29,883 nucleotides of DNA, taken from IMG/VR virus record IMGVR_UViG_3300027763_000173, positions 1 through 29,883 of that record; one strand, written 5' to 3'. Under the pieces are notes generated by a model, which was not told the origin of the DNA, did not search any database, and was given only the letters and a program-made list of their open reading frames with translations. This DNA is from a virus. The position numbers were made by a program, and so were the translations under genes. This document shows, piece by piece, positions 3,758 through 29,883 of the stretch. Positions within the stretch are counted from its first letter, which is position 1. Every line of letters starts with the position of its first letter.

Positions 3758-3968
3758 ATAATTCGATCTCCGCAATGTCAAAAATTGGTTCGGTTTCTAC
3801 GTGTCCGGTTGGACGGTCGATCTTCTGTGTAACCCAAAAGTCCCAGAATTGCAACCAAACCGCAACTTGACAACATCGGTTTCCGATGAATTTTTCGCGA
3901 TTTCCAACTGCCATTTCGAAAGCGTCGCAAGCTTTTCGGCGGATGTCTCGGTATTCCGTAGGTGTCAT
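3633..3968 (-). CDS. Hypothetical protein with acidic C-terminus
   Basis: This 111-aa frame starts at ATG 3968 (MTPTEYRDIRRKACDAFEMA), with AGGG-rich ribosome sites (AGGGCAGGG) directly upstream. The first 70 residues look like a real small globular domain (Trp/Phe-rich CCQVAVWLQFWDFWVTQ). The last ~40 residues are Asp/Glu/Ser-rich and lie over the start of the 106-aa gene in another frame. A GTG at 4043 would extend it by 25 residues. Without this gene, the stretch between the RusA gene and base 3757 would be empty, so I keep it. Its function is unknown. Confidence 0.55.
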   Translation of the reverse strand: MTPTEYRDIRRKACDAFEMAVGNREKFIGNRCCQVAVWLQFWDFWVTQKIDRPTGHVETEPIFDIAEIELYGRDHEPSDDGESDRTSDRHDAGHEADAEESLETTPESTAS

Positions 3969-4055
3969 TGCCCTGCCCTTCCTGGTGGTTTTGGTACTTT
4001 CGCGCGCGAGTCGCAGAAACCAAGAATACCAGCGTTTTTGCACGGTCGCAAGGAT

Positions 4056-4436
4056 CTACGTTTTTGCGTTGTCGCTCCAAATTGTAATATCTACCCCAAC
4101 TTTGCCCCCTGTCGAGCCGACTCCGGACAATTGTTCAACCGAATACAAACGTAGCTCCGAGTCATTCCGGAACAAACCAGCATCGGCCATTCCATCGATC
4201 TGAGCCTTGACCCAAGCAATCAATCCATCTTCGTCTCGCTTGCGTGATAGGTAGAACTTGAGCTTGTAGACTGGTCGATCGAGTGGTTCCCAGATCCCAT
4301 GGCGAATCATCATTGCTTGCGTCACTACCCGCGATTCGGCTCGAGTCGCTTTGACTGCCCTGCCCTTTGCATGGAAATGGCATCGTGCGTTTGGATGTTC
4401 GCACTCCCTCGGTAGGGCTAGTGGTATTGTGATCAT
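4056..4436 (-). CDS. rusA: RusA-like Holliday junction resolvase
   Basis: This 126-aa protein shows the RusA metal-binding pattern: D68-E-D70-G-L, then D81-G-M-x-D-A-G, then N-D92. It corresponds to the RusA acidic triad and has the family's usual length. The enzyme is a dimeric Mg-dependent endonuclease that cuts Holliday junctions and branched DNA from recombination and replication. ATG 4436 overlaps the upstream stop as ATGA. It sits at the end of the recombination-replication operon and would act with the RecE-like nuclease and the putative annealing protein encoded upstream. An earlier in-frame ATG at 4466 is inside the upstream gene and less likely. Confidence 0.88.
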   Translation of the reverse strand: MITIPLALPRECEHPNARCHFHAKGRAVKATRAESRVVTQAMMIRHGIWEPLDRPVYKLKFYLSRKRDEDGLIAWVKAQIDGMADAGLFRNDSELRLYSVEQLSGVGSTGGKVGVDITIWSDNAKT

Positions 4437-4636
4437 GCTTCGTTGTGCTTCCTGAGCTTCGCCCATTGCTTAAACGCTTTTGTCTTCCGTAACGAGTCTT
4501 CAATCACACCGGTACCGACTTCCGAAAGATAGTCGGCTACCCCTTGGCTAACCTTAATTGACTTTGGGACCGATCGCCCATTACCATCTTGACGAGGCTT
4601 CCGCCCCGCCCCTTCCCGCTTCCCGCCTTGGTTCAC
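4433..4636 (-). CDS. Small basic protein with GGKREGAGRKP motif
   Basis: This 67-aa protein begins V/M-N-Q-G-G-K-R-E-G-A-G-R-K-P. That Gly/Arg-Lys motif is common at the N-terminus of small phage DNA-binding proteins. A short helical domain follows (ISKVSQGVADYLSE-like, then SLRKTKAFKQW). The chosen start is GTG 4636, which overlaps the preceding stop as GTGA. A longer frame from 4693 would overlap the upstream gene by 60 bases. It lies directly before rusA and is probably co-translated. A DNA-binding or regulatory role is likely but untested. Confidence 0.65.
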   Translation of the reverse strand: MNQGGKREGAGRKPRQDGNGRSVPKSIKVSQGVADYLSEVGTGVIEDSLRKTKAFKQWAKLRKHNEA

Positions 4637-4884
4637 TTGGCACCGTCGATTCCCGCGTTCTTCGCGAACGCGTTGAACACTGTCACCATCCACGTTTGTG
4701 CCCCGCCTGCGAACTCTACTCGAACACCGTACTTTGAGTTGCGATACTCGTACGCTGCTTTGAATGCTTCCAATTCGCCATCGACCAGGAAGCTAAATCC
4801 CCAGTCTTTCATAGATACCTCTCGCATTGTGATTGCTTCGGTTTCGCCCGTCCTCTTGTTTTTGCAAGTCAGTTTATCCGTCAT
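4633..4884 (-). CDS. Hypothetical protein, 83 aa
   Basis: This 83-aa protein (MTDKLTCKNKRTGETEAITM) has an alpha/beta pattern: a charged N-terminus, then a WGFSFLVDGELEAFKAAYEY segment, then VRVEFAGG and a final helix. It is the first gene after the promoter at 4.93 kb. A GGAG ribosome site lies 9 bases before ATG 4884. Its stop overlaps the next gene's GTG. I do not recognise a family. Confidence 0.75.
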   Translation of the reverse strand: MTDKLTCKNKRTGETEAITMREVSMKDWGFSFLVDGELEAFKAAYEYRNSKYGVRVEFAGGAQTWMVTVFNAFAKNAGIDGAK

Positions 4885-4926
4885 TTTCTTGTCTCCGAGT
4901 TAGGTTTCGTTCTTCCCCACACTTCC

Positions 4927-4954
4927 ATTATACCTATCGGCTTGATTGTGGAAA
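4927..4954 (-). promoter_or_regulatory. Sigma-70-type promoter
   Basis: On the minus strand a perfect -10 box TATAAT (4932-4927) follows a weak -35 TTTCCA (4954-4949) with a 16-base spacer. Transcription would start near 4920, 36 bases before ATG 4884. The 88-base gap in which it lies is the only gene-free spot in this part of the operon, which supports an internal promoter for the RusA group. Confidence 0.6.
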
Positions 4955-4972
4955 TACCTAAATCAAAAATAA

Positions 4973-5188
4973 CTACCCGCATCCATGGAACGAATCGAAG
5001 TCGTCCCCGTTCCCGTCAACCCGCTTCGGTTGCTTGGTTTCTTTGAAGTCCGAGACAGCTGACTTGAGCTGATTCAGGCAAGCAACTTCAGCGTTGCCCA
5101 ATGGCATGCCCAACTTGCTCTCGACTTGTTCCGCGACCCTGACCGCCGCGTCCATCATTCGAATTTTCGCTTGTGCGTGATCAATCAT
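4973..5188 (-). CDS. Hypothetical protein, 71 aa
   Basis: This 71-aa helical protein begins MIDHAQAKIRMMDAAVRVAEQVE. Its tail is polar and Asp/Gly-rich. ATG 5188 overlaps the upstream stop as ATGA, so the in-frame extension to 5227 is rejected. It closes the gene group upstream of the internal promoter. The family is not recognised. Confidence 0.65.
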   Translation of the reverse strand: MIDHAQAKIRMMDAAVRVAEQVESKLGMPLGNAEVACLNQLKSAVSDFKETKQPKRVDGNGDDFDSFHGCG

Positions 5189-13119: not shown

Positions 13120-14289
13120 CTAGCCGTTCCAACACGGCGAAAGCTGTCTCCATGCCATCCAGTTGCACGGTCCAAACTTGCTAACGAAGTGTTTATGACC
13201 ACGCTGACAATCTTCGTTCGTCCATGCAACTGGGTGAGCCAAATGGAAAAAATAAGGTCGCCCAATCCATTCGGTTTCACGCTTGTCTCTCCCAAGGATC
13301 CATCCTAGCCAATAGTCCCACATTGGGCGACCAACCGAAAAAACCACTTCGGGAAGCTTGGAGACTTGATCAGGCCAAACCAGAAAAGCATCAAGCCCCC
13401 AAACCTCTTGGATTGCATCGGTTGGGGAGTCTTTGAAGTTATGCCGTATGCCTATCGCTGATTTCCCGGCTTTGACGATATCGACGATGGTCGACTGGTC
13501 CCCAATGATGCGAATGTCGGAGTTGATCAGTAGTACCGGCTTTTGTTTTGCAATCGCGACGTCCAGCAATCGATTGATCGGTTGCGTCGGCTTTGCGTAG
13601 AACGTACCAAGCACGTCGTTAGCTATCCATTCGTCGACCTGGGTGAATACTTCCCGAAGCTTATCGATTTCCTCGGAAGTGTTTACCGATACGACAGTGA
13701 GCCCTAATCGCTTCCATGTCGCGACCGCTTCCAACTGCTTTTCAAAATGCTTTGGGCCGATCGATGTCACCGCGACGACACACTCGATCGAGGGTTGTTG
13801 CCGATCGGCGTTTGGAAGATACACGTAGGAAGAGTTTTTCCATCGTTCTTTCGCTTCCTCAACTGTTAGCTCTGGCTTCAGAAGCTTGCGATTGACGTGG
13901 TTATGCCCTTCACAACTGTACGCTGTCCAGTCGTCGAATCGTGGTCTATTTACTTCGATCCATCGTCGCATGTCATCCTTGCACGTCACGCAACCGGGAA
14001 TACGCTCGATCCAATCCAATAGCCAAACCCAACTTGGATTCGCGATTGTGTGCCATTCACGCCAATGCTTGTGGTACGCGCCGTAATCGACTGGTGTTAA
14101 CGAAAAGTAGTCGATACCTGGGACAAGTTGCCCCGGTCCTGTATTGTCGTCCCATGCTTGCCGATACTTTTCATCGGTTTGGCAAAGCTTTCTCCAGTGT
14201 TCTCCCTTGTTTACCTTGTGCCGGTCGCAGAAACCAGCGATAGGGCACTCGCATGGAGGGGACACACGTTTTAACTTACAAGTGCTCAT
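13120..14289 (-). CDS. Glycosyltransferase-like protein with N-terminal Cys/His module
   Basis: This 389-aa protein starts with a Cys/His cluster (CKLKRVSPPCECPIAGFCDRH, residues 4-24). More possible zinc ligands follow at C100-x2-C103 and in SCEGHNH (126-131). From about residue 168 there is a GT-A-like nucleotide-sugar fold: IECVVAVTSIGP, a second strand LTVVSVNTSEE, and a motif VLLINSDIRII at 253-262 in the DxD position. It is the last gene of the virion operon, after a Cys-rich tail protein, so it may glycosylate virion or host surface proteins. The substrate is unknown. ATG 14289 overlaps the upstream stop as ATGA. Confidence 0.65.
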   Translation of the reverse strand: MSTCKLKRVSPPCECPIAGFCDRHKVNKGEHWRKLCQTDEKYRQAWDDNTGPGQLVPGIDYFSLTPVDYGAYHKHWREWHTIANPSWVWLLDWIERIPGCVTCKDDMRRWIEVNRPRFDDWTAYSCEGHNHVNRKLLKPELTVEEAKERWKNSSYVYLPNADRQQPSIECVVAVTSIGPKHFEKQLEAVATWKRLGLTVVSVNTSEEIDKLREVFTQVDEWIANDVLGTFYAKPTQPINRLLDVAIAKQKPVLLINSDIRIIGDQSTIVDIVKAGKSAIGIRHNFKDSPTDAIQEVWGLDAFLVWPDQVSKLPEVVFSVGRPMWDYWLGWILGRDKRETEWIGRPYFFHLAHPVAWTNEDCQRGHKHFVSKFGPCNWMAWRQLSPCWNG

Positions 14290-15293
14290 GCCGTTATCGT
14301 AACTGTGTATGATCCTGCGGAAAAAATTGGACCGCAACCACACGAAAGGTCGGATCCCGCGACAGTGTACGGTCCATAAAGTATGGAGATTGGATTGCAC
14401 GTAGCAGTTGACGGAAGTCTCGACCCACCGTGAAAACCATCTGAGTTAGTACAACCGCTGTCTAATAGGAGCAAGATTGCCTCAAGCGGATCGTTGTCGA
14501 CTGCTGGACACGTCCATCGCACTCTACCGGTAAAGCATCCGCAAGCGTCCCCTTTCCAGGTGCTATCTACTCGATCGTAGACTAACTGAGTATCGCAACT
14601 CAATGCTTCCATTCTCGGACCAAACCCCTGGAAACGAGCGTTTAGCACCGGTGGAATGTATGACGTATCGCATTTACATATACACACGGGACATGTCTCG
14701 AACGTTTCGTTATGCTGGACGAAACGGATGTCGTCGAACTTGAGCCCCGCTACACTCGCTTTCATTCCGATACGATAGCCCGTCGGGAATGGCGTTGCAT
14801 CTTTTCCAACAAACGAAAGAGTCGCATTTGACACCATTCCACAAAGCTCACCTGGAGCTATTCGAACCTGCAAATCTCGAGATAAATTGCTCAAGCCAAC
14901 AATCGTTGCGCTTTTGATCGTGGTATCTACCCCGCTGGTACGCTTTCCGATGGCTAATACCGACGTGTCTCCTGCGTTTCGGGTAAAGTCACACCAGTGA
15001 TAATTACTCGCATCGACCGCGTTACAAATAACGCGATACGTCGCCCCGCTGTCAAATACTTCGTCGATCGTCTTCACGATCGCTATTCCCGATGGGTCTG
15101 GATCCGGATGAAGCGTATCGAATATCGCCGCGTCAGTTGTATCGGCAACAGCTTGATTGCTTACGATCGAGAAATTGTCTCGAGTCGCTGCTGTCCATCC
15201 CGATCCAAGGTCGGTTGAATTAGCTCGATTGAAGTCGTCTTGTGCAATGTCGCAACTTTCTTCGTCACAACAGCAATATCCAAGTCCTCCCAT
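14286..15293 (-). CDS. Cys-rich tail-associated structural protein
   Basis: This 335-aa protein begins with a C-C-C cluster (MGGLGYCCCDEE). A concanavalin-like beta-sandwich at about residues 18-195 begins DDFNRANSTDLGSGW. A second Cys-rich domain from ~200 to the end holds CPVCICKC and later CGCG and CNP. The first domain resembles LamG-like carbohydrate-binding folds in tail and surface proteins. Many Cys residues suggest metal binding or disulfides outside the cell. It follows the tail-hub-like gene, supporting a tail-tip or adhesin role. No exact family recognised. Confidence 0.65.
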   Translation of the reverse strand: MGGLGYCCCDEESCDIAQDDFNRANSTDLGSGWTAATRDNFSIVSNQAVADTTDAAIFDTLHPDPDPSGIAIVKTIDEVFDSGATYRVICNAVDASNYHWCDFTRNAGDTSVLAIGKRTSGVDTTIKSATIVGLSNLSRDLQVRIAPGELCGMVSNATLSFVGKDATPFPTGYRIGMKASVAGLKFDDIRFVQHNETFETCPVCICKCDTSYIPPVLNARFQGFGPRMEALSCDTQLVYDRVDSTWKGDACGCFTGRVRWTCPAVDNDPLEAILLLLDSGCTNSDGFHGGSRLPSTATCNPISILYGPYTVAGSDLSCGCGPIFSAGSYTVTITA

Positions 15294-16586: not shown

Positions 16587-16819
16587 TTCCGTGCCTTGAT
16601 TTCCTTCCATGCTTCCAAAACTAGATCGACCCAATCCTCAAGCTCGGCTACTGGAGCTGGAACGTAGTTGGACGTCACAATGCGACCGATGGAACACAAT
16701 GGTTGCGGCTTGCCATCAAGAGCTTGCTTGAGTTGTGCGAGTACTGCGACCATTGCCGGATCCTGCGACAACTTCAAATAGGCTTCCGTGTGTTGGATCG
16801 CTTCCTGTATCTTGCTCAT
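16583..16819 (-). CDS. Small helical protein between head and tail genes
   Basis: This 78-aa protein (MSKIQEAIQHTEAYLKLSQD) is predicted to be helical at both ends, with a central hydrophobic segment. It overlaps the head-protein stop and the tail-hub start as ATGA on both sides. In this position phages often encode head-completion or tail-assembly factors. No family recognised. Confidence 0.65.
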   Translation of the reverse strand: MSKIQEAIQHTEAYLKLSQDPAMVAVLAQLKQALDGKPQPLCSIGRIVTSNYVPAPVAELEDWVDLVLEAWKEIKARK

Positions 16820-18543
16820 TTTGTAACTGGAATCCTAACTTGTGGGTGAGCAGCTACGGGAACGTACCATTGTGGACCGCCCCCCGCTACTGCTACGTGC
16901 TTTCCCGGTACCGACCATGTATCGATCGTAGGTGCCGTTACGCTCTGCAAATAACTGATTCGATCGAGCTTGGCTTTTTTGGTGTCGTAGGCTTTTTGCC
17001 TCCTGGGTAAAACCGGTTGACCTGGAAGCGTCCAAGCTGTTGCTTGTTCATAAATCCCTAACTCCTGTGGCTTCACCCCTTCAACACTAAAGTACGAACC
17101 GCGATAGCCCCCTTCCGCTTGCCACTGAACCATCTTTCTTGGTGGCGGAATCGCTGGAGGGGGACCAAGTGTAACGGGCTTGCTCAGATCGATCCCGTCT
17201 AACATGCCCTCCTGCGTGTTTGGCTTTAGCGGTACCATGGTCCCGGTCTTGTGGTCGTACGCAACAGCCATATTCGCGAAATAGTGCTTGGCGACGACCG
17301 TACGGGCTTCCCGATGTTCCGGCGAGTCGCCTTGCTCCGCTGCTTTCGCTAAAACCACCGGATGCAACTCGGCAACCTTTGCAGGTGCTTTTACCGCTTT
17401 TGCCTTGCCTGTCGCCTTTTGCCCCGTTTTGGAAGTTTCTGCCGGCGTTTTCTGTGCCCCGTCTCCGTCGCTGGTAAACTGCCCCCCGCCTTGCCCTTTT
17501 CCTTTGTGTTTGTGTCCGGCTCGATCGACTGACGACATTCGGACGATACCGCGATACCCAAACCCTGGTTCCGGTGGAAAGGGAATATGCTCTAGCCTGT
17601 GCTCCGGTTGTGCCGGTGGACGTCCCGAACGTAACCAGTCCATCGCTTCGCGTACCCCTAACCGTGCGGCTTGCTCGATCGTCAAGAGCATGGTTCCGCA
17701 TCGGCATTGATAGCCCCATGGTGGAGTATAGAAGTCCCAAAAAGGATCGTCGCGCCGATAGATCCCGGTACCGTTGAGCCCCAAACGCTCTAGGGCTCTA
17801 TGCGTCGTCCGTGTACGTGCATCGTGATTGCAAGTGTATCGCTGATAGGGAAACAATCCCGCGACGATAGGATGCGATGCCATGGTCTCCTTGCCATCGC
17901 GATACGCTGCTTGTACGTTGGTCCGATAGATGTTTTCAACGTGTGCCGGATGCAATGCCGAACCCTCGATCGACTCGGCTAGCTTTTGCTGGAAAGCTCG
18001 GATCGTTTGACCGGCTGAAACATCCTCGACAAGCACGTCGCGGATAGTCTCGATCGCCTTTTCGCCTAGATCGGCAGTAATGAAGAAAGCTTTCTTCTGC
18101 TCTTCCTCTCGAGCCAAATCCCATTGCGGTCGCGTCATCACGTTCCGACGTACGAGGTTCGAGACTGCTTTGTCGATAATCGGCAACCGAAGCGTCTTGA
18201 GCGAGTCATTGTCTCGGAAGTGTGGAAACAAATTCAGCTCAAACGGCTCTGGTTGCTTCCCTCCCCATAGTTGGTGTGTGAAGTGTTGCCATAGCCATGC
18301 TGGAAACTGCTTCGAAACTGAGTCAATTCCGCCGACCCAAGCAGCTAAATTAGTATCGGCCAAGTGATCGACCAATACCACCGACGACGATGCCCAAAGC
18401 GAACGGATTCGATTTAGGACACTCGGTATCGGAAGAGTACGATAAGAACTCGATACCGTACGAATGATGTCGTCGCGAACTTCCGCGAAAACCGCTTCCG
18501 CGCCGAATAGAGTCTTGTTGTAGATGTCGTCGGGCTCAATCAT
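16816..18543 (-). CDS. Mu gpF / SPP1 gp7-like minor head protein with C-terminal extension
   Basis: This 575-aa protein has an N-terminal helical region and a central MuF domain. Its hallmarks are the run NHDARTRTTHRALERLGL (about 239-256) and PFWDFYTPPWGYQCRC (about 267-282), the classic 'D-x-R-T-R...PP-x-G-x-C-R-C' of the family. MuF proteins are minor capsid parts near the portal that are carried into the host with DNA. The C-terminal ~250 residues are extra: a His/Lys/Gly linker (HKHKGKGQGGGQF), an Ala/Lys/Thr stretch, and an unrecognised domain. ATG 18543 overlaps the upstream stop as ATGA. Confidence 0.82.
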   Translation of the reverse strand: MIEPDDIYNKTLFGAEAVFAEVRDDIIRTVSSSYRTLPIPSVLNRIRSLWASSSVVLVDHLADTNLAAWVGGIDSVSKQFPAWLWQHFTHQLWGGKQPEPFELNLFPHFRDNDSLKTLRLPIIDKAVSNLVRRNVMTRPQWDLAREEEQKKAFFITADLGEKAIETIRDVLVEDVSAGQTIRAFQQKLAESIEGSALHPAHVENIYRTNVQAAYRDGKETMASHPIVAGLFPYQRYTCNHDARTRTTHRALERLGLNGTGIYRRDDPFWDFYTPPWGYQCRCGTMLLTIEQAARLGVREAMDWLRSGRPPAQPEHRLEHIPFPPEPGFGYRGIVRMSSVDRAGHKHKGKGQGGGQFTSDGDGAQKTPAETSKTGQKATGKAKAVKAPAKVAELHPVVLAKAAEQGDSPEHREARTVVAKHYFANMAVAYDHKTGTMVPLKPNTQEGMLDGIDLSKPVTLGPPPAIPPPRKMVQWQAEGGYRGSYFSVEGVKPQELGIYEQATAWTLPGQPVLPRRQKAYDTKKAKLDRISYLQSVTAPTIDTWSVPGKHVAVAGGGPQWYVPVAAHPQVRIPVTK

Positions 18544-18638
18544 CGCGGTTCCATTTCTTCCCACATTGATTCGGGAAACATATACTTTTCGTTTTCCCAG
18601 TATGCTAGTGCCCAATTAGGCAATTGGCTTACCGCCAT
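18540..18638 (-). CDS. Possible 32-aa head-region peptide
   Basis: This short frame (MAVSQLPNWALAYWENEKYM and 12 more residues) begins inside the end of the 126-aa gene and ends with an ATGA overlap to the MuF start. It is Trp/Glu-rich and acidic. It fills a 72-base gap that would otherwise break coupling. AAAGG lies only about 2 bases before the ATG, which is a poor spacing. It may be real or may be an untranslated coupling frame. Confidence 0.4.
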   Translation of the reverse strand: MAVSQLPNWALAYWENEKYMFPESMWEEMEPR

Positions 18639-18996: not shown

Positions 18997-19366
18997 TGCT
19001 TTCCTCTTCTAGTTCTCGTTTACAGACTCCATTGACCATTTCGCCACCGCAAGCTTCGCAGCGTGCGATTTCGATAATCTCATACACGGTACACTTTCGG
19101 CCCGATACCTTGCATTCCCTCGGTTCCACTTCCCTCACCCAACCAAGTCGAACACAATCAATCGCTCGTTTCCTGATTGAGTCGAAAATCGCAAATTCGC
19201 CTGGATAGACGTTACTCGCAACTTCCTTGGCTGTTGCTCTCCCTCCAAGAGCCCTCAACCCACTCATAAATTCCAACTTCCTGTCATTCAATCGTGGTTT
19301 AATGTGCTCCGCGCCATCGTGGCTCGTTTGCTTATCGTCTTTTCTTGCTAGCCCTAGAGTGTCCAT
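18989..19366 (-). CDS. Winged-helix protein with C-terminal zinc motif
   Basis: This 125-aa protein has a helical domain at residues 28-80 (DRKLEFMSGLRALGGRATAK, then VASNVYPGEFAIFDSIRKR). That is the pattern of a winged helix-turn-helix, followed by a strand (TVYEIIEI). The end has C103-x2-C106-x8-C115, likely binding zinc with C85 or C92. A DNA-binding protein among head genes is unusual; it may be a regulator or a virion DNA-associated protein. ATG 19366 sits in TAATG with the upstream stop; a TTG at 19378 is less likely. Confidence 0.65.
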   Translation of the reverse strand: MDTLGLARKDDKQTSHDGAEHIKPRLNDRKLEFMSGLRALGGRATAKEVASNVYPGEFAIFDSIRKRAIDCVRLGWVREVEPRECKVSGRKCTVYEIIEIARCEACGGEMVNGVCKRELEEESNG

Positions 19367-21258
19367 TAGTCGCCCCAAATCTTTGTACCGGCCAATGCTC
19401 CCTCTCTTACGTGTTGAGGGATGTCCGGCGAATTGTTGATCGTATCGACCGCGAACTTCGCAAGCTCATACCGGTCGATCGTTAGTGCTTCTGGTGGCAT
19501 CTGTCCGGATAATACCGGTGGATTGCCGTTTTTCAAAAAGACGCAAGTGACGTCTGAATCGGTTGCGTGTCGCTTGGCGAACTCGGCATGGTTTTTCGCT
19601 CCTAAAGCGTAAGAATCAGCAAACACCATTGCATCGACCATTCGCCCGTCAATAGGGTCTCCAGCTCGCTTGACCACACCGCGACCTGGATCCGCCCACG
19701 ATACTTTCGGATCGCTATGCACGTAAACGTACGAAACTTTGTGACCGCGTTTTCGTGCCTCCTGGAGAATCCAAGGATTTTCCGTTGCGTTTTGGTCCCC
19801 GGCTGAATCCCACACAACTGCAGCGCGTTTTTTCAGCTCCAAAGCTTGGGGAACACCCTTCAGCGCGAAACCCTTGCCAGCTCCACAACCACCGACCGTA
19901 ACCAGGATTTCCGACCCCTCCGGAAGTGTGTCCAGGTGCTTGACGAAAGCGTTCTTTGCAATCGCGTTTGCTGTTTGGTGTAGCGACGTGTTGAGCGTTG
20001 CCCGATTCTTCGACCGTTGCTCGAGGTTTTCATTCAGCTCGAGAGACTTCCAATATGGGCTCAGATTCTTGCAAGCGTCGGTTTCGAACGTTGCAGGGGA
20101 TCCAGGTTCCGCCATCGCGGTAAACATAATGACCGCATCGTTGATCAGCTTTTCCGGATCCGCTTCGAAAGCCTGAGCAAAGTGGTCTTCCGATTTCTTG
20201 GCGACTCCGGTAAGCCCTGGAATCCTCGGTATCTTTTTTGGGGGAGGGGGAACATCGAAAGCCGCAACCCCGACTCGAGCCCGATCGGTTATACCGTCGT
20301 GGTTTGGATCTTCGTCAACCCTCGGATTGTGATGACCGCCGAATATCTGCGACTTGTGCACCGGTGGCGGGGGAGTGTCGATCGGTGAGTTTGCCGGCTT
20401 GTTTGGTTGGTTTGGTTGGTTGGTTCGGCTCTTCTGTAAATCCTGAGCCTCAACGTAGCCTTGGGCATCGCTCCGACTCATTCCTTCCTTTTCCGCTGCC
20501 GACACCCTCGCTTCGTAGTCCGATGATTCGGATGGCTGTTTTGGTTTCGCCTTTCTGATCTGTTCTTGAAGATTCCACCGGCTCGGCCACTTTGCAGGAT
20601 CGATGCCAAGCTTGGTAGCCATCGCATCGACTTCGCTCTTATCCATTGCGTCCAGCTTCGCGTGAAATGCGTTTTGCTCTTTCAATGCGGCTTGTTTTTC
20701 CGATGGTGCTTTTTGCTTCGGATTGTTCAACTTGTCGACGATAACCTTGTTTTGCTTCGCCTGTGGGCTTTCGTACTTTTGCCCCGCCATCGAAGCTTTC
20801 ATTTCGTCTTGGGACAACTTCGGTCGCTGTTGTGGCGCTGCTTGGCCCCCCGCATCTTGCCGCGTCCATCGGTGATTCTCGTTGAGAACGTAGTTCACCC
20901 CGCCTTTGTTGACCGTGGTACCGACTTGAAGCGCCATTCTGCGACTTAGCGACATTCTTGCGACGTCTTCCCCCTCGATCGACAATTCCTCGGTATCGAT
21001 CCCGTCGGCTTCGTCGTCGGGTAGCAATCCCTCGAGAGCAAGTTGCATCGCTTCATCTTCCGTAGCCCCGACTTTCATATAATCCGATACCATGGTCTCG
21101 ACTTCACCGGCTTTGTTTGCGACAAATGCCTCCAGCTCATCGGAATCCATCAACTCGTTAAATAGTGGCTCGTTTGCTTCGATCGCACTACGAACCGCTT
21201 CAAGAATTTTAGGATCGCTTGATTCCGTCATCGTTTGTTTCATCCATGGGCTAGGCAT
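19366..21258 (-). CDS. Zeta-toxin-like P-loop polyvalent protein
   Basis: This 630-aa protein has an N-terminal helical domain (about 28-85) shared with the 118-aa gene. Next are an HRWTRQDAGG linker, a long polar linker with NQPNQPNKP, a calcium-loop-like DPNHDGITD (317-325), and a C-terminal P-loop kinase. The Walker A is GGCGAGKG at 456-463, in adenylate-kinase style rather than GK[ST]. The second motif VVWDSAGDQNATEN and the GRMVD region fit zeta-toxin-like kinases. Such toxins phosphorylate sugar nucleotides or related targets. In phages they occur in polyvalent proteins delivered with the virion. It starts 8 bases inside the 62-aa gene. Confidence 0.75.
   Translation of the reverse strand: MPSPWMKQTMTESSDPKILEAVRSAIEANEPLFNELMDSDELEAFVANKAGEVETMVSDYMKVGATEDEAMQLALEGLLPDDEADGIDTEELSIEGEDVARMSLSRRMALQVGTTVNKGGVNYVLNENHRWTRQDAGGQAAPQQRPKLSQDEMKASMAGQKYESPQAKQNKVIVDKLNNPKQKAPSEKQAALKEQNAFHAKLDAMDKSEVDAMATKLGIDPAKWPSRWNLQEQIRKAKPKQPSESSDYEARVSAAEKEGMSRSDAQGYVEAQDLQKSRTNQPNQPNKPANSPIDTPPPPVHKSQIFGGHHNPRVDEDPNHDGITDRARVGVAAFDVPPPPKKIPRIPGLTGVAKKSEDHFAQAFEADPEKLINDAVIMFTAMAEPGSPATFETDACKNLSPYWKSLELNENLEQRSKNRATLNTSLHQTANAIAKNAFVKHLDTLPEGSEILVTVGGCGAGKGFALKGVPQALELKKRAAVVWDSAGDQNATENPWILQEARKRGHKVSYVYVHSDPKVSWADPGRGVVKRAGDPIDGRMVDAMVFADSYALGAKNHAEFAKRHATDSDVTCVFLKNGNPPVLSGQMPPEALTIDRYELAKFAVDTINNSPDIPQHVREGALAGTKIWGD
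20399..20427. repeat. TTGGT low-complexity tract
   Basis: Irregular TTGGT / TTTGGT units repeat inside the zeta-like gene. On the minus strand they encode the NQPNQPNKP linker. It looks like slippage in a linker. Confidence 0.8.
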
Positions 21259-23460: not shown

Positions 23461-23817
23461 CTAGTCCGACTCTTCGTCGGCTTCGTCGTCGGTAATCTTT
23501 GTTGGCTCAACGTTAAGATGCTGGAACAATGCGTTTACGTGCTCCTGTTGCCCGTCTTCATCCTCCCAATCTTCGGAGGATGTTTCGTCCATTCCGAGTA
23601 GCTCTGACAATGCTAGCTCTACCGCTTCAGCTTCGTTTGATCCCTCTTCCAAGTACCCTCGATAGCTTGCAAGTGCTTCATCGACTCGGCTTGTTATGAA
23701 TAGGTCTTTTGCTTCGTCGCCTTCGGCCATTAGTTCGTCCCACAACTCCGGACGATTGTCGGCTAAATACTTCGCGAAAAGCTTTCCCCACCTGCTTTGC
23801 TTGTCATCACTTGCCAT
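23461..23817 (-). CDS. Acidic protein, copy of the zeta-like N-terminal domain
   Basis: This 118-aa protein is acidic. Residues about 23-75 align by eye with residues ~30-82 of the 630-aa zeta-like protein. Shared positions include a D/N-E-L-M block, an acidic helix, a Y...G...E-A-E/D-A...L-A-L...L-L pattern, and an acidic tail. The rest is Asp/Glu-rich (ETSSEDWEDEDGQQEHVN). It overlaps the giant methyltransferase-helicase gene by 11 bases. Such a small free domain could be a virion-targeting module, an inhibitor or a decoy of the large protein. Function is not known. Confidence 0.7.
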   Translation of the reverse strand: MASDDKQSRWGKLFAKYLADNRPELWDELMAEGDEAKDLFITSRVDEALASYRGYLEEGSNEAEAVELALSELLGMDETSSEDWEDEDGQQEHVNALFQHLNVEPTKITDDEADEESD

Positions 23818-26800
23818 CTGCTTTGTACCTTATTTTGGCGATAATCGTGTCTCCGGCGTCGTGTATATTATACAAGCCGTTCCCGTCCGTGCTAATTCTT
23901 AATCCAAGTGACTTCATTCGCTCAAGGTTACTTGTCAGACTTGTCTCGGTGGTTACGAGAAGTGTTTTGGCGTCTGGAGACTCACGCAAAGCTTTCTTGT
24001 CATTGCGTTGACTCGTAAGCGTTGCAAGCTCCCTTTCGCGTTCCTCGAGCAACTGAGCTTTCTTAAACGGTTGCCCTTCGGCCTTACGCAATCGTTCCAA
24101 ATCGCGTTGAAATGCTGCTAGGTTCTCGGTGTGCGTTATCGGATGCTTTGGTATCGCGTTGATAACTTTCTCGAGAGAATCGAACGACCCACCGTACGGA
24201 ATTTTTCGATCCGATGGTGTTGTGATCGTGTGCTTACCGTCTCGACTCACGGAAAGCTCAAAGCCTTTATAGCTTCCAAGCTTGCCCGTTCCCTGATACC
24301 CCTCTCGAGCCCAAGTATTATCGGAGTACTTCTCGATCGCTTTTGCTTGTGCCTCTTCGTACGCTGCCCGTGCGTCTCTACGTGCATCGGCAAGAGCTTT
24401 CTTGGTTCCCTCTTCCGTGTGAGTAATCTCGGTACCTGTGTGCGTCTTGAATTGAAACGATGGTTGCCGTTGCAAGTGCTCAGCGTCTTGCGTTGCTTGT
24501 TTGATCGATCGAGAGTAGTTCTCGATTCTCGCTGGAGCTTCGCGAATCGCTTCACTGATCGTGCGTTGCTCGTTTTCGGCTCTTCCCTTCGAACGTCGCA
24601 ATCGTCGAACTTCGTCCTGTAGTCCGATCTGTCGCATCATTCCAGGATCCCCGGTTGCAATCGCAATCATCTGCTCAGGCGACATATCGTCGGTGGAAAT
24701 GTCTTCCATGGTCCGAAGCGTTTTGTCACCGATCATAAACTGATTGATGAAACCCGACTTGTTCGCCAATATCTGCCACGAAAGGTAATCGGCTGAACCC
24801 TCTTGGACATACTTGAACACGTCGATACCACCCGTATCTTTGTGCATGTTGCCCTGCCGATGGGCTCTACCGTCGCGTTGCTCGAGCGCCGATGGGTTGT
24901 ACGGAATGTCCAAATGATGGATCGCTTTTAGTTTCTTCTGGATGTTAGTACCGGTCCCAAGTCGCTCAGTGGATCCAAATGCGATTCGTGCGTCTCCACG
25001 TCGTAGACGTGCCTGGGCATCTTCGCGTTGGATGTCGCTCATATCCTGCGAGAAATCGATTATTTCCCCCGGTGGTATTCCCGCCGCTACTAACTTGTCT
25101 TTCATATCCTTGAACAACGAAAAATTGGTCTTGTTCGTGTCGTGGATACCCGTATCTGAGAATACTGCTTGAACGTGATCCTTGCTTTGATGGTAGACGT
25201 CAAGGATATTCTTGATCGCTGTGTTCGCCTTGGAATCTGGATGGTCCGGAAGACTCGCATCGTAGAGCCGCAAATCGATCGATGCTGCTCTCGCATCCGT
25301 GTTGATAATAAACGGGCTATCGTGAATCATTTCACCCGCAGCGCTTCGAACTAACCTTTCCGATCTTCCGCCCCGGCATGCCAATGCCCGTTCCTTTATC
25401 TCTTCCATCACGGAATCCATATCACTCGATCGAGCTACCGCGATTGCGTGTTCATGCTTGTCCGGTCGGATTAAGTTAGGGATGTCGACAGCTCGCTTAA
25501 TGTCCATCATTTCCGATGCCATGTTGCGAAGCTCGGGAAGGTTCATAAACCGCTTGAACCGTTGTGTTGCGACCGCTTCCCCCTTCAGCTTGAACTCAAA
25601 ATCGTTTGTGATTTCGCCGTAGGTATCCGCCCAATCGTCAAACCGCGATACACCGCGTTCGCGAAGCACGTCCGATTGGATGAACTTCTGCATAACGTAC
25701 AATTCCGCCATGCTGTTGGTAATCGGTGTTCCCGTCGCGAACACAACTCCCCGACCGTCGTTTTGCTCCTGTAAGTAGCGACACCGTGCAAGCATGTCCA
25801 GGGCTCGAGCACTAGCCGAAGCAAGCTTGGGAATGTTTCCCACCTTGTCGTGCTTGGTAGTGATCGGCAATCCCTTGAACTTGTGTGCCTCATCAACGAA
25901 CAATTGATCGATGCCAGTATCCTCAAAGTAGATCGCATCTTTGTCTTCCGATCGGAGTACCTTGTCGAGATAGCCTTGGATGCCCTTTTTGCGGCTCTCG
26001 ATCTTCTTGATATTGTTCTGCAATGCTTTGCTTTTGCGTTCCCGGTCTTTCTTGGTGGTCTTTTTGTACTTACCCTCATCTTCCAAATCGGTTAGCGCGT
26101 CCATGTCGGCTTGTTTCTTCTGAGCCATAACCAATGCGGCTTCTAGCTCTTGGATTTCCTCACCGATGACTCGCTTGATCGTGTCGGGCTTCATCTGCAT
26201 CTTGGCAATGTTCTCATGCGTCATAATGACCATGTCATAATCGCCGGTTGCAATGCGGTTCAACATTTCTTGGCGGTTCTCTGCCGTGAAATTCTTTCCT
26301 AGCGATAGGATTCTCGCATCTGGATAGAGTTGCTGAGCCTCTTCCGCGAATTGTTCGATGTTCGCGTTCTTTACCGCAAACGCTGGTTTTTTTGCAAGCC
26401 CCATGCGTCTCAGCTCCATTGCCGATGCGACCATGGTCGATGTCTTGCCGGTACCTACTTCGTGTGCAAGCAATCCGCGACCGGTCTGGACAATTCGCCA
26501 AGCAGCATCCTGTTGAATCTTGCGAAGCTTGAACGTGTCTACCATGCCTGGGAATGTTTGGTGACTGCCATCGTACTTGGTATCGACGTGCGTGTTTTGC
26601 GTCTCGTTATAGATCGCTGCCATTGCCTCAGTTCGCTCCGGATCCGAGTCAAACGCCCACTCCCTAAATTGCTCCTGGAGTGTCGCAATTTTCTCGGCAT
26701 ATCCGTCGGTTGCGTCTTTATCGATCGCTCCATCGCTGTCGCGTACCAAAACGGGCTTGCCGTTGACCGCTGCACTCATAACCCGTTCAAAGTCGCCCCA

Positions 26801-29800
26801 TACGGCTCGCGTCGAATGAGCGTACTCAACATGGTCGTTTAGAATCGTCATGGCGAAATTGCCACCGTCTCGAGACATTCGGAAGTCTTCCATGTCCGCC
26901 CCGAGAACGTGCGCCGCAAACTCCTGGAGTCGATCGACTGGCACCCAAGGGGAACTCATCGTCACGCCGATTTCGTCCGATGCAATTGTTTCTGGTTGGT
27001 TTTGCTCGAGCGCTCTAACGTTCGCTTCGAATGTCGGATCGAGAATTGCCGCATGTCTCGCTTCCGCAAGCTTCCGCTTGGTATTCCCCGAAAGGTACAT
27101 AGCGGCTGGCATCCAAGTGCCGTTAGGATCCTGGAATGCTAGTCCTTTCTCTCGTAGATCGTTGCCTACTTCCTCTTCCGTTTGCCCCGTCAACGTGGCA
27201 ATTCTCGAGAGAGACAATCTACCGGTCTCATGGAGCGATATTGCAAGTCCTTCCGCTGGTCCGTCTGCTGTTGTCGCTCGCTCTCCACGAACTTGCGTAT
27301 TCTTGCTAAACATATCCGCCTTGGTCGCAGTATTGTCGCTCGAGTTATACTTTTCGAGCGATAGCAAGAATGTCGCGTCCGGATCCCCCTTCATTGCCTT
27401 TCGGTTATCGGTTTTATGCAATGGTCCGTACTTCGCGTAGAAATCGTCATAGAGCTTATTCAGCTCTGTGCGGTCTGGTTCCTCCCCGCGTCTCTGAGCC
27501 TGGAGCACTTCCCGTGCTTTGTCCTTCAAAGCAATCATCGACGTAACTCGATCGACGTTTTTCTCCGGTACCGAAAACGGTTTCAAAGCACCGTTGGAGT
27601 ACTGCATGATGTTACCGTCTCGAGATACAAGTTGCCCCTCATGGAGTAGCTCATCGGTAATGACCGTTGATTCTTCCGATTTCTTTACTTGCGTTTGGAC
27701 GATGTCGGATGGAAGTCGATCGATTGCTGCTTGAAGCATGTCGTCGTACGACTCGTTGCGCTCGACATTCTTCATTCCACCCGTGTACATTGTTCCGCTT
27801 CGGTTCAAAGTCCCTAAAATCTGATCAGGATTGTCAGCAAAGTACTTATTGATCCGGATGTCTTTCCCGCCCTCCGGATCTGGTACAAGCTCTGTGTTGT
27901 TCCAGGAAGGTGCCGCAATTCGCTTACCATCTTTCCAGTGGTAAAGTCGTCCAAGGCTATCGGTTGTTATGCCCGTGAAACCTGGAGAATAGCGAGTCTC
28001 GACACTTTCCCCGTTGCGTTGACGTTCGATTTCTTCGTTCGTCATGTTCATTTCGTACGGTTGCTTTGGCATTGCCTCCGCTGGAGTTTCGTCCGTTACT
28101 GGTGGTATCGCTGGATTCTTCTTTCGCATGATCAGCATATCGGTAACGACTTCGGTACCGGCGTTCTCGCTGTGTGCATCCGATGGGAAACGAATCGCGG
28201 AAACAAACTCGGTATTCTCATCAAGCAGATTTCGAACGTCGTCGGAAATCTTATCCATGGTACCGGTCGACGTTAGTTGCATGATCAAGCCCCCTGGCTT
28301 CGTCGTGTCCATAGCTCGCAAGAAGTAGTAATCGTGGAGTTGGGCGCTAATCTTGTGCTTGGGATAGTAAATCTTTTGGTTAGCGTCAAAAGGCACGTTG
28401 GTCGCTGTCAAATCGAAGTAGTTATCAGGCGACTTGAACTCTTGAAACGGCTTGATATGCACGTCTGCACTCGGATAAAGAGCTTGCGTAATTGCTCCGG
28501 ATCCAGAATCCATTTCGACCGCTGTGACGTGTGTCTTTTCCGCCAAGTGCTCTGGCATGAATCCAAGGTAGTACCCTGACCCTACCGCTGGTTCTAGGAA
28601 TCGCCCACCTTTGAAACCAAGCTTTTCCGCCATCTTCCAATGGGCTTCGACAACACTCGGATGCGTATAGTGTCCATTGATGGTGGAAGCTCGAGCGTCG
28701 GCGTAGCCCTCGAGCCCTAGCAAGTCCTTCAGCGTTTGCCTCTCCTTGCTCCACTTCTTATAGTTGGCTTCCGTTTCGACGGATTTCGTACCGTCCGGAA
28801 GTGTGTAATCGAACAATCCCGGCATTTGTCCCCAACCTACCCACTTGGATATGGTCTCTTGCTCTTGTGGCGTTGCCGAACGTCCCTCGAGCTTAATTTC
28901 GCGTAGGGTCTGCAATGCTGCGATGTTGTCCTTAAACTTGGCTTTTACCCCACTCGAGAAAAAGTCCTTGCTCTTGTAACGGTAGTTGCCCTCGGTGAGA
29001 GACCGCTTTGGCTTGTATTTTGGCGCTGCCGGTTTTGATGGCACGGACAGTGTTGGAACAATATTCGGCTTTTGTCCGGACGCTCGTTTGCGTTGCAGTT
29101 GCTCCGCGCCAAAGTCCGATGCCTCTTTTATGGTACTGAATCGCTCAGGATAGTCCGTCTTACCATCGGCGGATTTATGCGTAACCCTATAGCCAGTATC
29201 CTTGCCGTGCGTGTCGTACTGTACTTTGATCGAATGACCATCCTTGAATTTGATGGTGCGATTCTTTTGAAGCATGTCGGAATGCTTGTCGCGAAGCCCG
29301 ACGTTTAGATTCTCGAAAGGCTCGATCGACCTGTTTGGTTTTGATACTTTCGCCTCGACTGGAGTACTCGATCGAGAGCCCGATGCAATTTCCTTTAGTT
29401 GCTCATCGGTTGCATGGTCGATCTGATCGTTCGGAATGAAGTTTCCTCCGACGTACTCATGCCCGTTGATAACGAGGGGACTATCCTTCGTGTATCCCTT
29501 TGGAGCGTGTCTAGGTCCGTTTCCCAAGCGATGGATGTTGTAACCAAGTGCCTTGCGTGCCGCTGCAATTACCGCGTGTGGGCTATTCGCCATTTGTTGC
29601 ATACTTGGCGGTCCACCCATACCACCCCCGCCCCCGCCCATGTCGCCCCCCATGCCCCCGAACGGATCCCCGCCTTGACTGTCCTGCATGCCGTTGGATT
29701 GCTTCGCCCCTTGCTGCTGGAGCATTTGCAGCGCTAACGGCTTATGTCGCAGTTTGAAGGAAACGTTTTCGCCAAAGTTGAGTTGAGCCAATGGCAAAAG

Positions 29801-29883
29801 CGTTTTGTATAAGTCGCAAAGGATCTGAGTCACCCACGTATCGAGCCCCGCGTAGAATGCTGCCATCGGGAGGGATTTACCTT
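23807..29883 (-). CDS. Giant methyltransferase-helicase polyvalent protein (5' end outside window)
   Basis: At least 2019 residues from ATG 29866, but that ATG has no ribosome site and the frame stays open to the right edge, so the gene probably starts outside. Near the visible start are a helical segment and a Gly/Met-rich run (residues ~66-86), as at the ends of some portal proteins. A methyltransferase follows, with motif I EPAVGSGYYLG (425-435) and TNVPF (489-493, the NPPF position). The SF2 helicase has Walker A HEVGTGKT (1135-1142), DEAH (1325-1328), ATGTP (1377-1381) and QRDGRAHRQG (1663-1672). The C-terminus is coiled coil. This matches DarB/COG4646-type anti-restriction proteins injected with phage DNA. 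Confidence 0.85.
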   Translation of the reverse strand, partial: GKSLPMAAFYAGLDTWVTQILCDLYKTLLPLAQLNFGENVSFKLRHKPLALQMLQQQGAKQSNGMQDSQGGDPFGGMGGDMGGGGGGMGGPPSMQQMANSPHAVIAAARKALGYNIHRLGNGPRHAPKGYTKDSPLVINGHEYVGGNFIPNDQIDHATDEQLKEIASGSRSSTPVEAKVSKPNRSIEPFENLNVGLRDKHSDMLQKNRTIKFKDGHSIKVQYDTHGKDTGYRVTHKSADGKTDYPERFSTIKEASDFGAEQLQRKRASGQKPNIVPTLSVPSKPAAPKYKPKRSLTEGNYRYKSKDFFSSGVKAKFKDNIAALQTLREIKLEGRSATPQEQETISKWVGWGQMPGLFDYTLPDGTKSVETEANYKKWSKERQTLKDLLGLEGYADARASTINGHYTHPSVVEAHWKMAEKLGFKGGRFLEPAVGSGYYLGFMPEHLAEKTHVTAVEMDSGSGAITQALYPSADVHIKPFQEFKSPDNYFDLTATNVPFDANQKIYYPKHKISAQLHDYYFLRAMDTTKPGGLIMQLTSTGTMDKISDDVRNLLDENTEFVSAIRFPSDAHSENAGTEVVTDMLIMRKKNPAIPPVTDETPAEAMPKQPYEMNMTNEEIERQRNGESVETRYSPGFTGITTDSLGRLYHWKDGKRIAAPSWNNTELVPDPEGGKDIRINKYFADNPDQILGTLNRSGTMYTGGMKNVERNESYDDMLQAAIDRLPSDIVQTQVKKSEESTVITDELLHEGQLVSRDGNIMQYSNGALKPFSVPEKNVDRVTSMIALKDKAREVLQAQRRGEEPDRTELNKLYDDFYAKYGPLHKTDNRKAMKGDPDATFLLSLEKYNSSDNTATKADMFSKNTQVRGERATTADGPAEGLAISLHETGRLSLSRIATLTGQTEEEVGNDLREKGLAFQDPNGTWMPAAMYLSGNTKRKLAEARHAAILDPTFEANVRALEQNQPETIASDEIGVTMSSPWVPVDRLQEFAAHVLGADMEDFRMSRDGGNFAMTILNDHVEYAHSTRAVWGDFERVMSAAVNGKPVLVRDSDGAIDKDATDGYAEKIATLQEQFREWAFDSDPERTEAMAAIYNETQNTHVDTKYDGSHQTFPGMVDTFKLRKIQQDAAWRIVQTGRGLLAHEVGTGKTSTMVASAMELRRMGLAKKPAFAVKNANIEQFAEEAQQLYPDARILSLGKNFTAENRQEMLNRIATGDYDMVIMTHENIAKMQMKPDTIKRVIGEEIQELEAALVMAQKKQADMDALTDLEDEGKYKKTTKKDRERKSKALQNNIKKIESRKKGIQGYLDKVLRSEDKDAIYFEDTGIDQLFVDEAHKFKGLPITTKHDKVGNIPKLASASARALDMLARCRYLQEQNDGRGVVFATGTPITNSMAELYVMQKFIQSDVLRERGVSRFDDWADTYGEITNDFEFKLKGEAVATQRFKRFMNLPELRNMASEMMDIKRAVDIPNLIRPDKHEHAIAVARSSDMDSVMEEIKERALACRGGRSERLVRSAAGEMIHDSPFIINTDARAASIDLRLYDASLPDHPDSKANTAIKNILDVYHQSKDHVQAVFSDTGIHDTNKTNFSLFKDMKDKLVAAGIPPGEIIDFSQDMSDIQREDAQARLRRGDARIAFGSTERLGTGTNIQKKLKAIHHLDIPYNPSALEQRDGRAHRQGNMHKDTGGIDVFKYVQEGSADYLSWQILANKSGFINQFMIGDKTLRTMEDISTDDMSPEQMIAIATGDPGMMRQIGLQDEVRRLRRSKGRAENEQRTISEAIREAPARIENYSRSIKQATQDAEHLQRQPSFQFKTHTGTEITHTEEGTKKALADARRDARAAYEEAQAKAIEKYSDNTWAREGYQGTGKLGSYKGFELSVSRDGKHTITTPSDRKIPYGGSFDSLEKVINAIPKHPITHTENLAAFQRDLERLRKAEGQPFKKAQLLEERERELATLTSQRNDKKALRESPDAKTLLVTTETSLTSNLERMKSLGLRISTDGNGLYNIHDAGDTIIAKIRYKADGK

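What the first reader, a model, noticed from the sequence alone, without database searches (positions are those of the whole stretch)
23807..29883. Giant methyltransferase-helicase, possibly fused to a portal-like part
The protein has an N6-MTase-like core and a full SF2 helicase set, as in DarB-type anti-restriction proteins. The visible N-terminus is helical then Gly/Met-rich (as at ends of portal proteins), and the frame is open at the window edge. A single gene joining a head component to an anti-restriction enzyme would be unusual. The fusion is a hypothesis only.
Basis: partly seen in the sequence, partly recalled or inferred. Interest (0 to 1): 0.62.

Follow-up and report, generated by a model that had tools for sequence, protein, structure and literature searches.

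The report
Phage portal welded to anti-restriction enzyme
A phage gene joins the ring through which DNA enters and leaves the virus head to a giant DNA-methylating motor enzyme thought to shield the DNA from bacterial defences, and related phages carry other exchangeable enzymes at the same spot, which suggests the portal serves as a carrier for swappable weapons.

Summary
The window is a whole virus record that stops inside the gene. A near-identical 46-kb contig (L009) continues the frame without a stop for 342 further codons, giving one 2366-aa ORF: Mu-type portal (about 1-411), Gly/Met-rich linker, a ~50-aa junction module ("Link"), then a DarB-like N6-methyltransferase plus SNF2-type helicase. 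The portal fold is supported by structure prediction (all 50 Foldseek rows shown are portals) and by Portal_Mu hits over the Pfam cut-off in relatives; no second portal gene was found. Both halves are under purifying selection.

In 24 clusters of this portal family the C-terminal cargo is polymorphic: DarB-like (6), ParB-like (12), zeta (4), 2H (2), or none recognised. Near-identical phages differ in cargo, with breaks at codon ~520-560 by the Link; one relative carries the same Link-DarB module on its MuF protein instead. Hosts are probably planctomycetes.

Small portal-effector fusions and MuF toxins are in print; a full DarB on the portal, and portal cargo switching, I did not find in nine searches. 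Delivery, release and enzymatic activity are inferred. New variant of a known kind.

The parts
23807..29881 (-). 3' part (2024 of 2366 codons) of the portal-DarB fusion gene; the 5' 342 codons lie beyond the window edge and are read on L009:8960-16060
   Evidence: window identical to L009 over 16,074 bases
29675..29881 (-). C-terminal end of the portal domain (full-length residues 343-411), the part aligned to the C-terminal region of solved portals
   Evidence: A2 alignment, AlphaFold2 model, Foldseek/VIA portal matches; local portal HMM hits window residues 1-77, 122 bits
29528..29674 (-). Gly/Met-rich flexible linker after the portal domain (residues 412-460)
   Evidence: read directly in the translation; similar Gly/Met/Gln/Pro/Asp-rich runs near residues 390-442 in 9 of 24 clusters
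29360..29518 (-). 'Link' junction module (APKGYTKxxPLVIxGxEYxGGxFIP...; residues 464-516); cargo-swap breaks in relatives lie at its end or just after it; also found before DarB on a MuF protein (L025)
28112..28951 (-). N6-adenine-methyltransferase-like domain of the DarB-like cargo (motif I at 28574-28600, NVPF at 28388-28399)
24725..26557 (-). SF2/SNF2-type helicase domain of the DarB-like cargo (Walker A 26441-26455, DEAH 25883-25894, ATGTP 25724-25738, motif VI 24857-24880)
16816..18615 (-). MuF-type minor head protein with C-terminal Ntox46 toxin domain; the other effector-bearing head protein of the same phage
   Evidence: Pfam Phage_Mu_F E 7.9e-11 and Ntox46 E 3.7e-11; PHROG 220 E 6.5e-32
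19366..21258 (-). 630-aa zeta-kinase-like protein between portal and MuF genes, bearing the short 'HRW' tag at 20854-20943
   Evidence: weak Pfam Zeta_toxin E 0.0018, below cut-off; homologues in relatives; tag

Best explanation
The gene encodes a portal protein with a C-terminal DarB-like DNA methyltransferase-translocase. Shown: one continuous, conserved frame; a portal-family domain; an intact DarB-type enzyme; a junction at which cargo has been exchanged. Inferred: twelve subunits form the portal ring at one capsid vertex. In solved portals the C-terminal domain is the crown, on the capsid side, so the roughly 218-kDa cargo of each subunit would be built into the head at fixed number, without needing its own capsid-targeting signal as P1 DarB does. 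After packaging the enzyme sits beside the incoming or outgoing DNA. It enters the next cell with the DNA, intact or after release by proteolysis in the linker, or acts on the DNA as it passes the portal, and methylates or remodels it so that restriction enzymes do not cut. The portal (and MuF) thus act as carriers for exchangeable anti-defence or host-takeover enzymes.
For: Frame: L009 2366 aa, L010 2370 aa. Complete portal-DarB ORFs in 5 of 24 portal clusters, plus one cut by its contig end. Portal: Portal_Mu over cut-off in 11 of 14 records, once each; Foldseek, 50 of 50 rows shown are portals; VIA Z 20.0 with P74-26, 16.5 with JBD30, 14.9 with Mu. DarB: PHROG 10089 E=0. Selection L009/L010: dN/dS 0.033 portal, 0.021 MTase, 0.022 helicase. 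No second portal ORF: 51 of 51 loci with a portal-HMM hit had exactly one such ORF. Modularity: L044/L046 97.2% identical over 11.5 kb up to codon ~520, then DarB alleles diverge; L005 and L038 portals 96.0% identical with ParB versus DarB cargo; L027 versus L028, 99.3% identical over 4,599 nt, differ by an in-frame ParB cargo; L025 has MuF-Link-DarB. Precedent: P1 DarB is a head protein believed to enter the cell (PMC9024508, PMC5512222, passages); crown as C-terminal domain of the P1 portal (PMC12810830, passage).
Against: The L009/L010 portal on its own is only a sub-threshold Portal_Mu match (L009 E 0.013); no match in either record; the profile-to-PDB sequence search gave only a weak portal row (E 0.68). 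Identification therefore rests on homologues and fold. The model has pLDDT 74 and pTM 0.63, and the alignments have large rmsd (about 10 A). No proteomics; release route unknown (no Peptidase_S78 or Mu-like protease family match). A portal normally stays in the virion, so injection needs cleavage or threading. A weak PHROG 'portal' match (E 0.0018) exists in a 435-aa ORF near TerL on the L009 contig. No methylation or protection data.
Confidence: 0.7

Rival explanations
1. The polyprotein is cut during head maturation: the portal assembles with its tail, a prohead protease cleaves in the linker (the Gly/Met run, or the hypervariable stretch at residues ~600-645), and free DarB remains in the head and is ejected like P1 DarB. 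(A sub-version of the best explanation.)
For: Linker is low-complexity and the 600-645 stretch is hypervariable (dN/dS 0.67). A conserved 435-aa ORF between TerL and the head genes looks, by eye, like a protease-scaffold protein.
Against: No protease family matched (A8 versus PDB). No cleavage-site consensus was found.
Confidence: 0.45
2. The cargo acts while tethered: the methylase-translocase sits at the inner mouth of the portal and works on DNA threading through during packaging or ejection, which would explain protection of the packaged molecule only.
For: Geometry follows from the fusion; the DarB class pairs a methylase with a SNF2-type dsDNA translocase and P1 DarB protects in cis (PMC5512222, passage).
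Against: L025 carries the same module on MuF and P1 DarB is a separate, ~40-copy protein (PMC9024508), so tethering to the portal is not required. Cargo-free alleles exist for the ParB type.
Confidence: 0.2
3. The fusion is an assembly or annotation artefact, or a decaying gene fusion.
For: Metagenomic contigs only. L040 has a stop at codon 392 by one base against L035, at the portal's end.
Against: Six portal-DarB clusters, several seen in more than one contig; purifying selection in both halves; no frame break in the cargo of L009 or L010.
Confidence: 0.03
4. Another portal builds the vertex and the fused portal domain is only an anchor or relic.
For: A 435-aa ORF downstream of TerL on the L009 contig matches PHROG 27974 'portal' weakly (E 0.0018, residues 245-343).
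Against: hhalign of its family with the portal alignment: probability 0.1%; no portal-HMM hit in L141 and never two portal ORFs in one locus; relatives have a bare portal of the same family next to MuF (L028, L033).
Confidence: 0.05

Closest known systems
Phage P1 DarB (Dar system)
   Same: DarB-class methylase plus SNF2-type helicase; head-borne; linked to protection from type I restriction; in P1 the darB gene (ORF 10) lies next to the portal gene prt (ORF 11) (PMC9024508, passages)
   Different: P1 DarB is a separate protein of about 40 copies sent to the head by an N-terminal signal within its first 30 residues; here the enzyme is the C-terminal part of the portal polypeptide
Portal-effector fusions among polyvalent proteins (Iyer et al. 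2017; 2022 follow-up)
   Same: Effector domain fused to a portal domain: PBECR, 2H phosphoesterase, InPase (BcepF1.124), Nudix, ART (PMC5512222, PMC9503650, passages)
   Different: Those named in the passages are single enzymatic domains; here ~1,950 residues with a full DarB, in a family whose members switch cargo
MuF polymorphic toxins (Zhang 2012; Jamet 2017)
   Same: Head protein with variable C-terminal toxin or effector; the window phage has one too (MuF-Ntox46)
   Different: [quoted passage not shown] cargo here is mainly anti-defence or DNA-acting by family
Fused portal-MuF genes in Microbacterium phages
   Same: Portal gene with an extra domain in frame (PMC7302621, passages)
   Different: Joins two head proteins, no effector enzyme mentioned
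T7-like cyanophage giant internal proteins (e.g. P-SCSP1k 2563-aa protein)
   Same: Relatives of the ParB-like cargo module occur there
   Different: Not on a portal; annotated hypothetical, an ejected role is my inference from gene order

Membership tests
Tailed-phage portal protein, Mu type (PF06074) | Sequence match to Portal_Mu over the curated cut-off | tested here: inconclusive
   Window phage (L009) E 0.013, under cut-off, no match; 11 of 14 related records over cut-off; L009 portal is 40-63% identical to its relatives in A2 other than the near-copy L010
Tailed-phage portal protein, Mu type (PF06074) | Portal fold | tested here: met
   Foldseek 50 of 50 rows shown are portals; VIA Z 20.0, 322 residues, rmsd 10.4 with P74-26; 16.5 JBD30; 14.9 Mu
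Tailed-phage portal protein, Mu type (PF06074) | Dodecameric ring in the virion | not testable with these tools
   needs cryo-EM or proteomics
DarB-like antirestriction protein | N6-MTase core followed by SNF2-type SF2 helicase in one chain, with motifs | tested here: met
   PHROG 10089 E=0; motifs
DarB-like antirestriction protein | Head-borne and protects DNA from restriction | not testable with these tools
   virion location inferred from the portal fusion
Polyvalent protein (Iyer et al.) | Several effector domains in one polypeptide linked to packaging genes | tested here: met
   Portal-DarB (MTase plus helicase) here; Portal-DarB-Zeta (L007), Portal-ParB-DarB (L039), Portal-LPD1-2H-ParB (L015) in relatives
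Polymorphic-toxin-like carrier system | Conserved N-terminal carrier with switched C-terminal modules | tested here: met
   24 clusters; DarB label needs 4 changes on the portal tree, at least 3 forced by starred branches; swaps
Polymorphic-toxin-like carrier system | Cognate immunity gene beside the toxin module | not tested
   not searched

The most novel reading that the evidence does not exclude
The portal ring is a general, evolvable 'tool turret': phages of this planctomycete-associated family plug interchangeable anti-defence engines (DarB, ParB-like, zeta, 2H/Acb1-like) into the portal C-terminus through a conserved junction, in fixed 12-fold number, and the DarB version treats each DNA molecule in cis as it threads the portal, so that modification is coupled to packaging or ejection.
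Probability: 0.2. Interest if true: 0.9.

Novelty: new variant of a known kind. Interest (0 to 1): 0.72.

Why it matters
How DarB protects only the DNA it travels with is, to my knowledge, not settled. A natural portal-DarB fusion fixes the enzyme's place and number in the virion and makes that question testable. More widely, it shows the portal, a conserved and constrained head part, tolerating about 2,000 to 2,500 extra residues and behaving as a carrier whose cargo is swapped between near-identical phages, parallel to MuF polymorphic toxins. It is also a natural lead for loading enzymes into phage heads.

Tried and rejected
Portal domain against cultured phages by tblastn: no match for L009 or L007 queries, so no record of that collection carries a member detectable that way. 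Portal alignment against PDB sequences: only a weak portal row, E 0.68.

Terminase: PHROG 2 missed the L009 record; the TerL found is PHROG 979, E 4.7e-95, on L141:548-2209. I first took L009:6672-8453 (593 aa) for TerL; no family matched it and I dropped that.

Junction fold: model pLDDT 69.5, pTM 0.40, no Foldseek match at E<=0.001, best E 0.02; not interpreted.

Internal starts: methionines precede several tags, but I saw no Shine-Dalgarno-like stretch upstream when reading; internal initiation is not excluded, since no score was computed.

HRW tag as a family-specific packaging signal: weakened, because the same motif occurs inside giant DarB-like and polyvalent proteins of other phages. 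Six weak rows in portal-ParB ORFs look like the ParB 'NGHHR' stretch and I do not count them.

'DdrB-like' for the ParB module: not claimed. The Pfam scans of ParB-bearing cargo (the L004 and L005 full-length proteins) showed no ParB family.

The L025 region was one of two seeds of my MuF HMM, so that hit is circular; Pfam confirmed it independently. Seeds of the other module HMMs also match their own HMMs by construction.

The 31 other DarB-like loci were tested only with this family's portal and MuF HMMs; other portal types fused there could be missed.
Full report
Observation. The minus-strand frame 23807-29881 is open to the window edge (2024 aa). The window is a complete IMG/VR record, so the edge is a contig end. 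The protein matches PHROG 10089 'DarB-like antirestriction' with E=0 and Pfam SNF2-related, Helicase_C and ResIII. MTase and helicase motifs are intact (motif names recalled).

Beyond the edge. Scans of viral contigs with the N-terminal 205 residues and with the 2019-residue ORF found the same phage on longer contigs. The reverse complement of the window equals L009 from 9984 on, 0 mismatches in 16,074 bases. The frame continues 342 codons upstream: 2366 aa in L009, 2370 aa in L010.

The added part is a portal. Portal_Mu scores E 0.013 for L009 (below cut-off), 5.1e-6 for L005 and 3.2e-8 for L007. Over 14 records the family is found in 12 at E<=0.1, in 11 over the cut-off, once per record and always in the portal-cargo ORF; the L009 and L010 records give none. 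An AlphaFold2 model of residues 1-411 on a 24-row alignment (pLDDT 74.4, pTM 0.63) matches portals in all 50 Foldseek rows shown, best E 1.3e-11, and VIA gives Z 20.0 (P74-26), 16.5 (JBD30), 14.9 (Mu), with rmsd near 10-12 A. Against this, the profile search of PDB sequences gave only a weak portal row (E 0.68).

No second portal. In the loci scanned (L001-L052 and L141-L143), 51 had a portal-HMM ORF at E<=1 and none had two. The L009 contig has, upstream: TerL (L141:548-2209, PHROG 979 E 4.7e-95), a 435-aa ORF (3813-5120), a decoration protein and a weakly matched major head protein. The 435-aa ORF has a weak PHROG 'portal' match (E 0.0018), but its 10-row family against the portal alignment gives hhalign probability 0.1% and it has no portal-HMM hit. 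By eye it resembles a protease-scaffold protein; no family search confirmed that.

Conservation. L009 against L010: dN/dS 0.033 portal, 0.021 MTase, 0.022 helicase, 0.067 overall; only residues 600-645 are strongly relaxed (0.67). So one frame is maintained across portal and enzyme.

A family with switching cargo. A scan with five portal domains found 39 viral loci, and two in planctomycete MAGs. Their ORFs fall into 24 clusters at 93% identity. Module HMMs, after Pfam and PHROG scans, give: DarB-like in 6 of 24 (one cut by its contig end), ParB-like in 12, zeta in 4, 2H in 2 (one with an Acb1 match over the Pfam cut-off), nothing recognised in 6 (of which 3 are nearly bare), and 1 cut off. 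Some carry two or more: Portal-ParB-Link-DarB (L039), Portal-Link-DarB-Zeta (L007), Portal-LPD1-2H-ParB (L015). On the portal tree the DarB label needs 4 changes, at least 3 forced by starred branches.

Swaps between near-identical phages. L044 and L046 are 97.2% identical over 11.5 kb up to codon ~520, after which their DarB parts align only in pieces at about 72% or less. L046 and L038 go from ~76% to ~98% identity at codon ~515-570. L005 and L038 have portals 96.0% identical but ParB against DarB cargo; the L035/L038 alignment (L035 is the same contig as L005) stops near codon 521. L027 and L028 are 99.3% identical over 4,599 nt; L027 has an in-frame ParB cargo, L028 does not; L029, 99.0% identical to L027 over 9,866 nt, lacks it by another junction. 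In the DarB and L005 cases the break falls at, or within ~50 codons of, the end of the Link module.

The same module on another head protein. In L025 the portal carries ParB, and a MuF protein (Pfam Phage_Mu_F E 3.9e-9) carries Link plus DarB. In L007 the MuF protein carries ART-PolyVal. In the window itself MuF carries Ntox46.

Reverse view. A scan with the MTase alignment gave 45 loci: 13 on contigs with the portal-DarB fusion (one of them, L050, lacks its 5' end), 1 with MuF-DarB, 31 giant ORFs without a match to this family's portal or MuF HMMs (the first 14 classed by contig identity or directly). The fusion thus marks this portal family; other portal types were not tested.

Host. Two MAG loci are titled Planctomycetaceae and Pirellulaceae; 11 of 396 genomes of the order of the second hold the portal at E<=1e-5. 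The ORFs there are 169-663 aa, and none of the 12 loci shows a recognised cargo.

Mechanism. Shown: encoded fusion, portal fold, intact enzyme motifs, constraint, cargo exchange. Inferred: 12 copies inside the head. A volume estimate puts twelve 218-kDa cargos at 3-5% of the inner volume of a 55-65 nm capsid (capsid sizes assumed). [quoted passage not shown] Iyer et al. state that DarB protects in cis and suggest methylation plus translocation (PMC5512222, passages). The fusion would replace a targeting signal with a covalent bond. How the cargo leaves the portal, if it does, is open.

Literature. Seen as passages: PMC5512222, PMC3482391, PMC9503650, PMC7824862, PMC12810830, PMC9024508, PMC5576092, PMC7302621. 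They report portals or MuF joined to small effectors and portal-MuF fusions. I did not find portal-DarB, portal-ParB, or cargo switching on a portal in nine searches; figures and supplements were not read. PHROG 21, named 'portal protein', matches the ParB-like cargo with its C-terminal part, so portal-ParB fusions may already sit unremarked in databases.

Noticed in passing
window 20854-20943 (-), also L007:16604-16696, L007:18068-18157, L023, L035: A ~30-residue motif (consensus MxLQPGTTKxxNGKTYxLNENHRWT) recurs in otherwise unlike effector proteins, often at the start of a module: 19 strong rows in 10 of 20 records. It also occurs in giant DarB-like and polyvalent proteins of other phages. 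Possibly a shared packaging, processing or spacer element.
   Followed up: partly
window 16816-18615 (-): MuF head protein with C-terminal Ntox46 toxin domain; immunity gene not looked for.
   Followed up: no
L040 codon 392 versus L035: One base (TTA to TAA) puts a stop right at the end of the portal domain in an otherwise near-identical contig; natural cargo-off allele or sequencing error.
   Followed up: partly
L015 and L034: 2H phosphoesterase cargo on the portal; in L015 it also matches the anti-CBASS family Acb1 over the Pfam cut-off (E 1.2e-6), in L034 below it.
   Followed up: no
L031:11054-13990: 978-aa portal extension with no Pfam match and only one PHROG match, of unknown function (E 2.3e-6).
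   Followed up: no
window 13120-14400 (-): 426-aa protein with an Erv1/Alr sulfhydryl-oxidase match (E 2.2e-7, over cut-off), unusual in a phage to my knowledge.
   Followed up: no
L009 residues 600-645 (window about 28973-29110): Hypervariable stretch just before the MTase: dN/dS 0.67 between L009 and L010 while portal, MTase and helicase are near 0.02-0.03.
   Followed up: no
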